Assembly: GCA_947305555.1 (NCBI GenBank)
Contig: CAMZDW010000001.1
Coordinates: 1 to 64,000 of the forward strand
Origin: an uncultured Elusimicrobium sp.
Lineage (GTDB): Bacteria; Elusimicrobiota; Elusimicrobia; Elusimicrobiales; Elusimicrobiaceae
Direction: 5' to 3'
DNA length: 64,000 nucleotides
Shown: one piece after another, positions 40,011-53,894 of the stretch
Layout of the letters: each line of letters starts with the position of its first letter
Position numbering within the stretch: the first letter of the stretch is position 1
Made by a program: the position numbers and the translations under genes
Notes under the pieces: model-generated
Seen by the model: the letters and a program-made list of their open reading frames with translations, nothing else
Database searches by the model: none
What the model was told of the DNA's origin: nothing

Positions 40011-40044
40011 ACGGTTTGGTACTGATTACCAAACCGTTATTTTT
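40011..40044 (+). terminator. Terminator between the outer-membrane protein and amidase genes
   Basis: Perfect 11-bp stem ACGGTTTGGTA/TACCAAACCGT with a 5-nt loop, then TTATTTTTT on the plus strand. It overlaps the stop codon of the convergent amidase gene. Confidence 0.85.
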
Positions 40045-41953
40045 TGGAAGGTGCCGCTTTCAAAACGGGAGGAGGTGCCGCCCGTAGATACGTTTTTTTA
40101 GGGGATTTCTTAACGGGGGCCGGTGGAGGTTTCACTCCGTAGAAATTTAAAATTCCCTCATACAATGCCTGTACTAGCGGCTTTCGTCCTTCGGCTGTTT
40201 TAGCCATTTCTTCTTGTTCCGGTAAGATAATAAAGGCATTTTCAACTAAAATGCTTGGCAGTTGTGAAATACGCGGAATGAATAACACATCATTTACAAT
40301 TAGGCCATTATCAGCCACGGGAGCAAGCCGGTTGTAGGCTTTATAAACGGCTTGTGCCAGTGCAAAACTATGAGGATACGTATAGTACACGGAATAACCG
40401 CGTGGCCGGGACAAAGGATTGACTGTATCCGGCAGGGCATTATAATGTAAGCTAATGAATAAGTGTGCATTTTCTTCCAATGCTTTTTGATAACGTCCCT
40501 GCAAACTGACATGATTGTTCCCTTTCCGCGTCAAAATAACAGTAGCCCCTAATTTTTCAAGCAAGGGTTTTAATTCGTTGGCCAGGGCTAAAGTAGCTTC
40601 GTATTCCAAGTAACCGGTGGGACCTACTGCTCCATCATAGGGAGGGGTCCTTTTGGGGCTGTGCCCGGCATCAATCAAAATACGGGCGCCCAACAACGGT
40701 TTCTGTTCCGTGGACTGTAGTTGTGGCCGGTGCATGACGTCTACCCATAAATTATTTTCCTCAAAGTCGTACCCATGCCCCCACGGAGATTGCCCGGGTT
40801 TAAAATAAATTTTAAATAAGATGGTATGGTCTGCGAGTACGGTCCAGCTAATGTTTTCAACGATAGGGCTTCCACTATCAAAACTAAAATTTTCCTCAGG
40901 CATGTCTGTGTAATACATCACTACTTCCAAACGGTCCTTAAATTCCTGGATGCTTATGGGTACCTGCCGGGTTCCTTCAAAAGTAAATCGTGTTTTAAAA
41001 TCCGATACACTCATGGATAAGGAGCTTAACAAGTTGGCTTCCTGAATCGGACTTTCTGCCATTTTCAAATTGGATTTTTCCAACCAGGCAGTTTCTTGTT
41101 CGTTGAGTACTAGCCGGTATTGGTTTGCCTTTTCACCGCTGATATTTATTTGCCCGTAAGCACGATAGTAGGGGTATAGATTGCCTTGAGCTGTGGGTAA
41201 TTTGCGTAATTTAGTGCCCGGAGCCGTAATAATAACTTGTTTTAAAGGAGTCGTCGGCCAAATAGTCAATTTGGCCGGAGCTGTTACCTTAGCTTTCGAG
41301 TGATCTTCGGCGAATTTCATTCGGTAAGAGATTTTTGCTTCCTTCGGTTTTTGGTTAGGGTCTATTACAAAGCGTGCCCGGTAAGTGCCCGGGGCTTTGG
41401 AATCTTCCTTTAACGAAATATTTTTGCCGCCTTTTAAACCACTTAGCGTGGCCGTTACTTCCGCTTTGGGAGTGCCACGTACGTAAAGATCCACAGTATC
41501 TCCCGGAAGGAGGGCTACCGGGCGTTGCGGAAAGACCTCTTCTTCGTCAAAAGAGGCCGTTTGTTCAAACTCTTTAATATTCGCACCTGGTACGACAATA
41601 TTTCGCACAGCTTGAAAGGTTTGGCCTTGACTGGTTGCCGTTAGTACAAATTGGAAAGGGCCCCTTTCTACCGGTAGAAAAGTTAAAAAACCGCCGTTTT
41701 TATAAACGGGTACGGTGGAACCATTGATTTCCAACGTAACGGGAGAAGGTAAACGGACTTGCCCAAAGATAAAAATATTTTTTGCACCATGGGTCACCTT
41801 CATATTTTCTTGAGGATATTGTACGGTAATGGGGGCAGTAGCCGGAGCTGTTTTTTCTTGGCCGGGCAAAAAAGGAGCTACCGGAAGGGTGTCTTCCGCC
41901 AAGACAAAAGAGCCAAAACAGAGGAATAATACTAAGAAAAGTGTTTTTTTCAT
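40037..41953 (-). CDS. N-acetylmuramoyl-L-alanine amidase (AmiC/Amidase_3 type)
   Basis: 638 residues. Signal peptide (~1-19, 'TLFLVLFLCFGSFVLA'). A long N-terminal beta-rich region (~45-400) contains Ig-like stretches ('NIFIFGQVRLPSPVTLEINGSTVPVY') and an AMIN-like part. The Amidase_3 domain (~425-620) has zinc ligands in 'ILIDAGHSPKR' (His), 'GYLEYEATLALANEL' (Glu) and 'FISLHYNALPD' (His), with 'SILVENAFIILPEQEEM' carrying the catalytic Glu. It cleaves the lactyl-amide bond of peptidoglycan, typically at septation. Lys/Pro-rich C-terminus. Start predicted nearly leaderless (3 nt) from TGTTATCAT shared with the divergent Nif3 gene. Confidence 0.9.
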   Translation of the reverse strand: MKKTLFLVLFLCFGSFVLAEDTLPVAPFLPGQEKTAPATAPITVQYPQENMKVTHGAKNIFIFGQVRLPSPVTLEINGSTVPVYKNGGFLTFLPVERGPFQFVLTATSQGQTFQAVRNIVVPGANIKEFEQTASFDEEEVFPQRPVALLPGDTVDLYVRGTPKAEVTATLSGLKGGKNISLKEDSKAPGTYRARFVIDPNQKPKEAKISYRMKFAEDHSKAKVTAPAKLTIWPTTPLKQVIITAPGTKLRKLPTAQGNLYPYYRAYGQINISGEKANQYRLVLNEQETAWLEKSNLKMAESPIQEANLLSSLSMSVSDFKTRFTFEGTRQVPISIQEFKDRLEVVMYYTDMPEENFSFDSGSPIVENISWTVLADHTILFKIYFKPGQSPWGHGYDFEENNLWVDVMHRPQLQSTEQKPLLGARILIDAGHSPKRTPPYDGAVGPTGYLEYEATLALANELKPLLEKLGATVILTRKGNNHVSLQGRYQKALEENAHLFISLHYNALPDTVNPLSRPRGYSVYYTYPHSFALAQAVYKAYNRLAPVADNGLIVNDVLFIPRISQLPSILVENAFIILPEQEEMAKTAEGRKPLVQALYEGILNFYGVKPPPAPVKKSPKKTYLRAAPPPVLKAAPSKK

Positions 41954-41962
41954 TCTTATAAA

Positions 41963-41972
41963 ATGATAACAT
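41963..41972. promoter_or_regulatory. Shared divergent -10 element for the amidase and Nif3 genes
   Basis: One 10-bp stretch (ATGATAACAT) reads TGATAACAT on the plus strand, with its hexamer 12 bp from the ATG at 41979. On the minus strand it reads TGTTATCAT, with its hexamer 15 bp from the ATG at 41953. Both are extended -10 motifs, and neither gene has an RBS. No separate -10 fits better in the 25-bp intergenic gap. Confidence 0.65.
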
Positions 41973-41978
41973 AATTTT

Positions 41979-42731
41979 ATGGTCCATTGTGAAGACGTGA
42001 TTAATTTTATGAGTACCTACCTAGCTAGTGCCCAAATCCCGGATGCCAGCTATAATGGTTTACAAGTGGCCGGAACGCCGGAAATTAAAAAAGTGGTGTT
42101 CGGGGTGTCTGCTTCCATGGAATTATTCCGTCAGGCTTCCTACGCCGGGGCAGATTTAATTGTGGTACACCACGGCCTCTTATGGGGGCAAGAGCAACCG
42201 CTTACGGGGTTGTTCCGGGAACGGGTAGCTTTTCTACTTCACAATAATATTAATTTGGCGGCGTACCATTTACCGTTGGATAAACATCCGGTGGTAGGTC
42301 ACAATGCCTGTTTGATGCGTGCTCTGAATGCGGAGCGGGTACAACCGTTTGGCACCTATCATGGAGTAGAAATTGGATATAGCGGTTTTGTAAACCAGCC
42401 GCTGGAACAGGTAGTGAAAACATTGGAGAATTTGTGCCAAACCAAAGCGCAAGTGCTTCCTTTCGGTCCGGAGCAGATCAAGCGGATAGCGGTGGTTAGT
42501 GGTGGAGCACATAGTTTGTTGCCGCAAGCCATTGAGTCAAAGATAGACCTCTACATTACGGGAGTACTTGATGAGCCGGTGCAGGAATGGTGTCGGGAAG
42601 GAAATATCCATTGTATTGCGTTGGGCCATTATAATTCCGAAAAGCCCGGCGTGTGGGCATTACAAGATTTGGTAGCTAAACATTTCTCAGGGGTAGAAAC
42701 CCAGTTTATAGATGTGCCAAATTCGATTTAA
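41979..42731 (+). CDS. Nif3-like dinuclear metal centre hexameric protein
   Basis: 250 residues, the short bacterial YbgI/Nif3 form without the PII-like insert. 'SYNGLQVAG' and 'ADLIVVHHGLLWG' (metal-binding His pair), 'AYHLPLDKHPVVGHNACLMRAL' (Asp/His) and 'ALGHYNSEKPGVWALQDLV' (C-terminal His/Glu ligands) are conserved. It is annotated in databases as GTP cyclohydrolase I type 2 homologue; real function unresolved. It is divergent from the amidase with only 25 bp between start codons, and 13 bp upstream of the M20 hydrolase. Confidence 0.9.
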   Translation: MVHCEDVINFMSTYLASAQIPDASYNGLQVAGTPEIKKVVFGVSASMELFRQASYAGADLIVVHHGLLWGQEQPLTGLFRERVAFLLHNNINLAAYHLPLDKHPVVGHNACLMRALNAERVQPFGTYHGVEIGYSGFVNQPLEQVVKTLENLCQTKAQVLPFGPEQIKRIAVVSGGAHSLLPQAIESKIDLYITGVLDEPVQEWCREGNIHCIALGHYNSEKPGVWALQDLVAKHFSGVETQFIDVPNSI

Positions 42732-42744
42732 AGGAGATAAAAAC

Positions 42745-43980
42745 ATGACGGGAAAAGAATTGTTGAAAAAAATTGATACCTATAAGCAGGACGTAATTGA
42801 TTTGCAAACAAACATGATTGCCTGCCCGGCGGTTTCGCCTTCCCAAGGGGGAAAAGGGGAAGGGGCCAAAGCAGCTTATTTGATGAGCGTGCTGAAAAAA
42901 ATGAAATTTGATGAAATTAAAACGATTCAAGTTAAAGATCCGCAAGCGGAAGGCGGGGTGCGGCCCAACATTATAGCGACCTACTATGGTCAAGACCGCA
43001 GTAAAACGTTATGGGTGATGGCCCACATGGACGTAGTCCCTGCCGGGAATTTGTCAGATTGGAAGACAGATCCGTTTAAGGCTGTCATCAAAGGAGATAA
43101 AATTTACGGGCGCGGTGCGGAAGATAACCACCAGGGCATTGTGTGTGGCCTTTTAGCGGTAAAAGCCTTTATGGATTGCGGTATCCGACCTCCTTGTAAT
43201 TATGCGTTATTGCTCAATGCGGACGAAGAAATCGGAAGCGAATTTGGCATCTTGGAAATTTTGAAAAAATATCCCAAAACGTTCGGGAAAAATGACGTAT
43301 TTATCGTACCGGATGGGGGCGTAGCCGACGGAACGATGGTAGAAATCGCTGAAAAAACGGTAATGTGGTTCGAATTTACCGTTCATGGTAAAGCCACCCA
43401 TGGTTCTACTCCCAAAACGGGTATCAACGCACACCATGCCAGTGCTCACTTAATTGTTCAATTAATTGATCAATTACACAAGAAATTTAACAAGAAGAAC
43501 CCGCTGTTTGCCCCGGAATCTGCCAGCACCTTTGCGGCTACTAAACACCAGGCGAATGTACCGAATGTAAACACAATTCCAGGCGTTGATGTGTTCTGCA
43601 TGGACTGCCGCGTTTTGCCTTGCTACACGCAAAAAGAAGTGTATGACGAAGTGATGAAAATCGTCAAAAAAATTGAAAAACAGTGCAAGGTAAAAGTGCA
43701 AGTAAAAGTATTGCATCAGGAAACTTCTAAACCAACCGATAAAAATGAACCGTTGGTGAAGTTGATGTTGCAGTCCGTCCGGCAGGTATATAAAAACTCC
43801 CCGAAAGTCGTTGGCGTGGGAGGCGGTACCGTCGCGGCGGCTTTACGTAACAAAGGGTACCCGGCTGTAGTATATGCTAAATTGGATGAAACTATGCACC
43901 AACCCAATGAATATACCAGCATTAAAAATACGCTGGGGGATAGCAAGATTTTTGCCTTGATTGCTTATCAATTCAAGTAA
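42745..43980 (+). CDS. M20-family metallo-hydrolase (DapE/ArgE-like)
   Basis: 411 residues from the ATG at 42745 (AAGGAG 8 nt upstream); the track start 11 codons earlier overlaps nif3. Zinc-site motifs: 'LWVMAHMDVVPAG' (H, D), 'YGRGAEDNHQGIVCGLLAV' (bridging D), 'LNADEEIGS' (catalytic Glu and ligand Glu) and 'VPDGGVADG'. The dimerisation domain is at ~190-300 ('FTVHGKATHGSTP'), and the final His ligand lies in 'MHQPNEYTSI'. It probably hydrolyses an acylated amino acid or dipeptide; it has been seen annotated as M20 family metallo-hydrolase or diaminopimelate-type enzyme. Exact substrate unknown. Confidence 0.9.
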   Translation: MTGKELLKKIDTYKQDVIDLQTNMIACPAVSPSQGGKGEGAKAAYLMSVLKKMKFDEIKTIQVKDPQAEGGVRPNIIATYYGQDRSKTLWVMAHMDVVPAGNLSDWKTDPFKAVIKGDKIYGRGAEDNHQGIVCGLLAVKAFMDCGIRPPCNYALLLNADEEIGSEFGILEILKKYPKTFGKNDVFIVPDGGVADGTMVEIAEKTVMWFEFTVHGKATHGSTPKTGINAHHASAHLIVQLIDQLHKKFNKKNPLFAPESASTFAATKHQANVPNVNTIPGVDVFCMDCRVLPCYTQKEVYDEVMKIVKKIEKQCKVKVQVKVLHQETSKPTDKNEPLVKLMLQSVRQVYKNSPKVVGVGGGTVAAALRNKGYPAVVYAKLDETMHQPNEYTSIKNTLGDSKIFALIAYQFK

Positions 43981-53109: not shown

Positions 53110-53871
53110 CTAAAATAAAATTGGAGCTAAGACGAAAGAAAGCATCATGCCTAAAGAGTAACTCGTTACATTTATCACTAAGCTGAGCACAAACGATTCG
53201 CCCAATGACATTTGCTTAAGGTTCATATAGCGAATGATTAGCGTTTCCGCCACTAAGCCAAACAACCAAAGTAGCGTGCTTTCCGGTACATACCAGGCCA
53301 AGTATAACCATGATACGGTCGTTGTGAGTAGGTTAGCGATTGCCACACTATAGAGAATGCGAAAACTTTTACGTTTATAAATTACGTATGCAGAGGCGGC
53401 TAGCAATTCCAAAATCAAAATAATGAATAACGACACCCAGGCATCCAGACGCGTCCAACCGCTGGCATCCGGAATAAGGTCGGTGGGTTCGACCATTAAA
53501 GCCTTTTCAAATACGTATACGTTAAACCGTGCGCGCAATTTGCGCGGGGCCAGAAAAATATTACTTTCACGTACGGAACCGTCCGTGAAAGCAATCACTA
53601 ATTTTTGATAGTCCGTATATTCATACGCAACGGAGAAACATTTCCCGGCTGAGCAATACAACTTTTGGATCCCGTAGTGCCCCAAAGGTTTACTTTCTAA
53701 GCATTGGTTATCACTACATTGGATTTGCTCACTGTGTGCCGGGTCAATAAGCGGTTTGTTTTGGGTTTCGTAAATGAACGAAAATTCCATCTCAGGCTTG
53801 GGGGACACATCCGCCCAGGCCGGCACTACAAAACAACTTACAAGCATCAAAAATACAAGTTTTTTTATCAT
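53110..53871 (-). CDS. Exported membrane protein of unknown function
   Basis: 253 residues, family not recognised. Signal peptide (~1-20, 'LVFLMLVSCFVVPAWA'), then a ~115-residue periplasmic domain with four cysteines in two pairs ('CSDNQC', 'CSAGKC'), probably disulfide-bonded. Four transmembrane helices fill the C-terminal half (~140-250). It has TGTTATAAT as a -10 with an 18-nt leader carrying an AGAGGA RBS, so it is not leaderless. It is divergent from the aminopeptidase gene; the two -10 regions overlap. Confidence 0.7.
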   Translation of the reverse strand: MIKKLVFLMLVSCFVVPAWADVSPKPEMEFSFIYETQNKPLIDPAHSEQIQCSDNQCLESKPLGHYGIQKLYCSAGKCFSVAYEYTDYQKLVIAFTDGSVRESNIFLAPRKLRARFNVYVFEKALMVEPTDLIPDASGWTRLDAWVSLFIILILELLAASAYVIYKRKSFRILYSVAIANLLTTTVSWLYLAWYVPESTLLWLFGLVAETLIIRYMNLKQMSLGESFVLSLVINVTSYSLGMMLSFVLAPILF

Positions 53872-53894
53872 TTTAAGATGTCCTCTATATTTTG

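What the first reader, a model, noticed from the sequence alone, without database searches (positions are those of the whole stretch)
41954..41978. One 10-bp sequence serves as extended -10 for two divergent genes
ATGATAACAT (41963-41972) reads TGATAACAT on the plus strand (leaderless Nif3 start) and TGTTATCAT on the minus strand (3-nt-leader amidase start). The whole intergenic gap is 25 bp. This predicts mutually exclusive polymerase binding and reciprocal expression of a septal amidase and Nif3.
Basis: partly seen in the sequence, partly recalled or inferred. Interest (0 to 1): 0.62.

Follow-up and report, generated by a model that had tools for sequence, protein, structure and literature searches.

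The report
Shared two-way promoter between divergent genes
A 10-base, nearly self-complementary DNA element lying between two head-to-head genes of a gut Elusimicrobiaceae bacterium very probably starts transcription in both directions with almost no untranslated leader, and it has been kept nearly letter-perfect in 84 of 86 related genomes; this is a striking, deeply conserved case of a promoter type already known from E. coli, and nothing shows that it acts as a switch.

Summary
In detail: 41963-41972 reads ATGATAACAT, an extended -10 on the plus strand (TGATAACAT, 6 bp before the Nif3 ATG) and on the minus strand (TGTTATCAT, 9 bp before the amidase ATG), in a 25-bp gap. In 84 of 86 readable Elusimicrobiaceae loci the core ATG[A/G]TANCAT is present, and its only freely varying base is one that neither promoter needs. 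Nif3 spacing is exactly 6 bp in 81 of 83 loci, amidase spacing 8-10 bp in 80 of 83. Genome-wide, hexamers TANNWT pile up exactly 6 nt before start codons lacking a Shine-Dalgarno site (68 of 351 genes in one relative, about 6 at other offsets), so leaderless mRNAs are general in this family. Predicted start sites lie 23 bp apart, a preferred class of E. coli bidirectional promoters. Best reading: a bidirectional promoter giving one leaderless and one near-leaderless mRNA. Not supported: 'reciprocal expression'. Polymerase exclusion follows from the geometry, but E. coli bidirectional promoters show little competition at basal strength (PMC12825309). A dGTPase/coaD pair in another genus has the same design. 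No transcript data exist; an operator at the same place is not excluded.

The parts
41954..41978 (.). 25-bp divergent intergenic gap holding both promoters
   Evidence: Read directly; the amidase start codon sits exactly 25 bp away in 72 of 86 family loci and within 1-2 bp of that in most others
41963..41972 (.). Shared self-complementary core ATGATAACAT (general form ATG[A/G]TANCAT; TGNTANCA is its own reverse complement)
   Evidence: Next to the Nif3 start in 83 of 86 loci, plus one where an inserted element has moved Nif3 away; only one column varies freely
41964..41972 (+). Extended -10 of Nif3, TGATAACAT; hexamer TAACAT at 41967-41972
   Evidence: Hexamer ends 6 bp before the ATG, the register of the genome-wide leaderless peak
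41963..41971 (-). Extended -10 of the amidase, TGTTATCAT; hexamer TATCAT at 41968-41963
   Evidence: 5 of 6 matches to TATAAT plus TGn; conserved in the family
41979..41979 (+). Predicted transcription start of Nif3 (A of the ATG; leaderless)
   Evidence: Inferred: 7 bp after the last hexamer base; T at -1 as in 85 of 95 non-pilin leaderless genes sampled. Not mapped
41956..41956 (-). Predicted transcription start of the amidase mRNA (about 3-nt leader)
   Evidence: Inferred from a 7-bp discriminator; 23 bp from the predicted Nif3 start. Not mapped
41979..42731 (+). Nif3/DUF34 protein, 250 aa
   Evidence: PF01784 E 1e-53; TIGR00486 above its cut-off
40037..41953 (-). N-acetylmuramoyl-L-alanine amidase, 638 aa; starts MKKTLFLVLFLCFGSFVLA (signal-peptide-like); Amidase_3 domain at residues 425-602
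   Evidence: PF01520 E 3.3e-31
42745..43980 (+). M20 peptidase, gene after Nif3, with an ordinary Shine-Dalgarno site (contrast)
   Evidence: AAAGGAG at 42730-42736; PF01546

Best explanation
The gap is a bidirectional housekeeping-sigma promoter whose two extended -10 elements occupy the same 10 bp in opposite orientation. The TG of each extended -10 is the complement of the CA of the other's hexamer. RNA polymerase binds in one orientation or the other: rightward it starts at the A of the Nif3 ATG (leaderless mRNA), leftward about 3 nt before the amidase ATG (near-leaderless mRNA). Two polymerases cannot sit there together, but at the modest strength expected of a promoter without a -35 element this should give two steady, largely independent low-level mRNAs, not a switch. 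Overlap of two promoters with two start codons locks the 25 bp against change. Shown here: sequence, spacing, conservation, and the genome-wide leaderless -10 signal. Inferred: actual start sites, strengths, exclusion, and absence of regulation.
For: (1) Core in 84 of 86 family loci while Nif3 falls to about 45% identity and the amidase to about 30%. (2) Only one core column varies freely (A71 T8 G3 C1): the third hexamer base for Nif3 and the free n of TGn for the amidase. (3) Core-to-Nif3 distance is 6 bp in 81 of 83 and core-to-amidase 8-10 bp in 80 of 83, expected if start codons are tied to the promoter and not to a leader. (4) TANNWT ending exactly 6 nt before SD-less starts: 26 of 175 genes (own), 68 of 351 (G014), 25 of 177 (G088), against roughly 4-6 at other offsets; SD genes lack the peak; TGNTANAATN6ATG occurs 33, 45, 30 and 30 times in four genomes against 4, 1, 3 and 4 control hits. 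(5) The fourth hexamer base is invariant C in all 83 aligned loci, where extended -10 leaderless genes mostly have A (29 of 38) and hisS and mutS orthologues keep A; C is what the opposite TG demands. (6) The 23-bp start separation is a known preferred class. (7) The same design at an unrelated pair, dGTPase/coaD in G067, 23-bp gap with ATGATATCAT.
Against: No transcript data. One-way leaderless promoters are also well conserved in these genomes, so conservation alone does not prove use of both strands. The amidase spacing (9) is not the genome-wide optimum (6). Promoters with C at the fourth base are enriched upstream of divergent neighbours only weakly (12 of 15 against 12 of 26, Fisher p = 0.05, with the Nif3 locus counted three times). 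A palindrome could also bind a dimeric regulator.
Confidence: 0.8

Rival explanations
1. The conserved palindrome is mainly the operator of a dimeric regulator that also overlaps the promoter(s); its symmetry reflects protein binding, not two-way transcription.
For: The core is self-complementary, extends to AAAATGATANCATAA, and a similar TTATGGTATCATAA stands before dGTPase orthologues.
Against: Only two copies of AAATGRTANCATAA in the own genome, so no sizeable regulon; the element sits exactly at the -10 register for Nif3 and for dGTPase, and matches the consensus of unrelated leaderless promoters. Symmetry is required anyway if both TGs are used.
Confidence: 0.1
2. One reading: competition for the shared core makes Nif3 and amidase expression reciprocal in the cell, and this is its selected role.
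For: Overlap means simultaneous binding is impossible; deep conservation of the overlap. In E. coli, activation in one direction can repress the other (PMC12825309).
Against: At basal activity the five E. coli examples show little competition. No activator site, -35 element or functional link between the two genes was found.
Confidence: 0.1
3. Only one direction is a real promoter; the other match is a by-product of -10 symmetry, and the other gene is transcribed from elsewhere.
For: The divergent RNA of a symmetric -10 is often antisense and non-coding (PMC10268837); amidase spacing is looser than Nif3 spacing.
Against: Both genes start within 25 bp, so any other promoter would lie inside the opposite gene. 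The invariant C of the Nif3 hexamer and the T at the third base of the amidase hexamer (82 of 83) are needed only by the minus-strand reading. In G066 an inserted element parted Nif3 from the core, yet the core stayed intact beside the amidase.
Confidence: 0.1
4. Nif3 uses the upstream hexamer TAAAAT at 41959-41964, with an 8-nt leader.
For: It matches 5 of 6 consensus bases.
Against: Its first T is lost in 21 of 83 relatives (column -4), and it has no TGn.
Confidence: 0.03

Closest known systems
Bidirectional promoters with shared -10 elements (Warman, Grainger and co-workers; PMC12825309, PMC10268837; the 2021 Nature Microbiology paper is cited there but not held)
   Same: Opposed, overlapping -10 hexamers; predicted start sites 23 bp apart, one of the preferred distances 18, 10 and 23; serves two divergent mRNAs.
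   Different: Here the TGn parts are shared too (fully self-complementary TGNTANCA), one mRNA is leaderless and one nearly so, and the element is conserved across a bacterial family. 'Leaderless' is not mentioned in either paper.
Leaderless genes with a -10 motif adjacent to the ORF (Deinococcus-Thermus, Actinobacteria; PMC3160421, PMC12340547)
   Same: TANNNT about 12 bp upstream of the start codon, no Shine-Dalgarno site.
   Different: Described one-way; the motif here is an extended TGnTANNWT; Elusimicrobiota are not named in either paper.
Extended -10 promoters (Mitchell et al. 2003, as cited in PMC12825309)
   Same: TGn directly before the hexamer, no recognisable -35.
   Different: Two such elements occupy the same ten base pairs.

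Membership tests
Bidirectional (shared -10) promoter | -10 elements overlap on opposite strands | tested here: met
   Hexamers 41967-41972 (+) and 41968-41963 (-) share 2 bp; the extended elements share 8 bp (41964-41971) within the 10-bp core
Bidirectional (shared -10) promoter | Divergent start sites 7-25 bp apart | not testable with these tools
   Predicted 23 bp from a 7-bp discriminator on both sides; not mapped
Bidirectional (shared -10) promoter | Both directions produce RNA | not testable with these tools
   No transcript data for any Elusimicrobiaceae were found
Leaderless gene (Nif3) | -10 motif at the register that puts the start site on the start codon, no Shine-Dalgarno site | tested here: met
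   6-bp spacing in 81 of 83 relatives; genome-wide peak at the same offset
Leaderless gene (Nif3) | mRNA 5' end at the start codon | not testable with these tools
   Needs start-site mapping
Leaderless gene (amidase) | -10 at the exact leaderless register (6 bp) | tested here: not met
   Spacing is 9 bp here and in 71 of 83 relatives; 6 bp in a few. Called near-leaderless only
Extended -10 promoter | TGn before the hexamer on each strand | tested here: met
   TGA-TAACAT and TGT-TATCAT; both TGs invariant in 83 aligned loci

The most novel reading that the evidence does not exclude
Elusimicrobiaceae use a recurrent promoter class, a self-complementary extended -10 (TGNTANCA) with start codons on both sides at 6-9 bp, as a compact two-way promoter for leaderless gene pairs (Nif3/amidase in three genera, dGTPase/coaD in genus g2), and polymerase orientation itself sets the ratio of the two products.
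Probability: 0.2. Interest if true: 0.68.

Novelty: new variant of a known kind. Interest (0 to 1): 0.5.

Why it matters
Whether bidirectional bacterial promoters are selected for or are accidents of -10 symmetry is open. Here is a case in which the bases that only the second direction needs (the C of the Nif3 hexamer, the T at the third base of the amidase hexamer) are kept in more than 80 species of three genera, while the one base neither direction needs drifts. That is evidence of selection for two-way use, in a lineage where leaderless mRNAs are common but not reported in the papers found here, and it can be tested with one short DNA fragment.

Tried and rejected
-35 elements: by eye nothing like TTGACA at 17 bp on either side. 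Regulon search for the extended core: 2 hits only. Sister family f2 of the order (19 loci) and one more distant phylum member: Nif3 present, but no divergent amidase found beside it and no core. Enrichment of C-type promoters at divergent pairs: only p = 0.05 and not independent; one of the own genome's four C-type promoters (C3:50161) has a same-strand upstream neighbour, so C at that base is not proof of two-way use. Papers on leaderless mRNA in Elusimicrobiota: none found; papers on leaderless plus bidirectional promoters: none relevant. The simple ORF caller missed the Nif3 gene of G014 (L326 'INSIDE'); counts from it are approximate.

Full report
What is there. The window lies on contig 1 of a 1.36-Mb genome whose closest named relatives are uncultured Elusimicrobium / Elusimicrobiaceae from gut and rumen. 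At 41954-41978 a 25-bp gap separates a 638-aa Amidase_3 protein (minus) from a 250-aa DUF34/NIF3 protein (plus). The two hexamers overlap by the central TA, and each TG is the complement of the CA in the other hexamer, so TGNTANCA is its own reverse complement. Neither gene has a Shine-Dalgarno site; the gene after Nif3 (M20 peptidase, ATG at 42745) has a normal one.

Chance and conservation. Shuffling the 25 bases gives both extended -10s in register with frequency 1.45e-4. Much stronger: of 90 genomes of the family, 87 have Nif3. In 86 the upstream region could be read; 83 have ATG[A/G]TANCAT at the gap (ATGATAACAT 71, ATGATATCAT 8, ATGATAGCAT 2, ATGGTAGCAT 1, ATGATACCAT 1), and in one more (G066) the core is present but about 280 bp from Nif3. 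The two loci without it (genera g3 and g4) also lack a neighbouring amidase in the sequence fetched. Some flanking gap columns vary freely (information as low as 0.05 bit) while 14 of the 15 columns from -3 to +11 around the core carry 1.78-2 bits; the one free core column is 41969. Core to Nif3 is 6 bp in 81 of 83; core to amidase is 9 bp in 71 and 8-10 bp in 80. The sister family in the order has Nif3 but no such arrangement in the 19 loci looked at.

Leaderless start sites are general here. In about 464 kb of the own genome, 800 kb of G014 (same genus) and 400 kb of G088 (genus g5), hexamers TANNWT upstream of SD-less genes peak sharply at one offset, ending 6 nt before the start codon (26, 68 and 25 genes, against about 4-6 per other offset), with T at -1 in 85 of 95 after removing a pilin family; extended forms TGnTANNWT peak the same way (9, 46, 7). 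Genes with a Shine-Dalgarno site lack the peak. Pattern counts over four whole genomes agree: TGNTANAATN6ATG 33, 45, 30, 30 hits against 4, 1, 3, 4 in reversed-pattern controls. hisS and mutS keep such a promoter at this register in nearly all of about 30 species each. So the reading of Nif3 as leaderless rests on the lineage's own rule, not on analogy alone.

Why two-way. In extended -10 leaderless genes the fourth hexamer base is usually A (29 of 38). At Nif3 it is C in all 83, the base that the minus-strand TG requires. The minus hexamer reads TATCAT with T at its third base in 82 of 83. In G066 an element with 28 of 30 matching terminal inverted repeats has inserted between core and Nif3 ATG; the core is still intact beside the amidase. 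A separate pair, dGTPase and coaD in G067, has a 23-bp gap with ATGATATCAT, 6 bp from one ATG and 7 bp from the other, and dGTPase orthologues in genus g1 keep TATGGTATCATAA next to a divergent gene that appears to have a Shine-Dalgarno site. Predicted start sites at Nif3/amidase are 23 bp apart, one of the three common distances at E. coli bidirectional promoters (PMC12825309).

How it probably works, and what is not shown. Polymerase with the housekeeping sigma binds the shared core either way round and starts a leaderless Nif3 mRNA or an amidase mRNA with a leader of about 3 nt. Steric exclusion follows. Reciprocal expression does not: in the E. coli work basal activity was too low for one direction to affect the other, and competition came only with strong activation (PMC12825309). 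No activator site is visible here. The likelier reason for the conservation is lock-in of two promoters and two start codons on the same bases. No start site, strength or regulation has been measured; a dimeric regulator at the palindrome remains possible (about 0.1).

Standing. Both ingredients are known: bidirectional shared -10 promoters and leaderless mRNAs. The combination, with fully shared extended -10s and conservation through three genera of one family, was not found in the papers searched, so it is filed as a new variant of a known kind.

Noticed in passing
G014:C1 (L115-L134, L155-L174), for example position 265093: At least 26 type IV pilin-like genes (MSKIYQK...GFTLIELLVVVLIIGILAAIALPQY) in 800 kb each carry a near-identical leaderless promoter, TTTTTTTTTTTTGATAAATTTTGNNT-ATG, which looks like a dispersed promoter-plus-N-terminus cassette; none in the window or in the G088 tiles.
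   Followed up: partly
L076 1981-2274 (genome G066): Insertion of about 270 bp with 30-bp terminal inverted repeats (28 of 30 match) and a possible GTA target duplication, between the shared core and the Nif3 ATG: a natural separation of the two genes.
   Followed up: partly
L317 (G067:C1, about 110652-110669, minus): dGTPase and coaD share a 23-bp divergent gap with ATGATATCAT, a second leaderless/near-leaderless shared-core case.
   Followed up: partly
G014:C1 266441-268796 (L128): Divergent pair with a 33-bp gap and two back-to-back extended -10s, both exactly 6 bp from their ATGs, not overlapping.
   Followed up: no
window 53871-53877 and L112 9541-9543: Two divergent ORF pairs with gaps of only 6 and 2 bp by the simple ORF caller; promoters would have to lie inside the opposite gene, or the start codons are wrong.
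   Followed up: no
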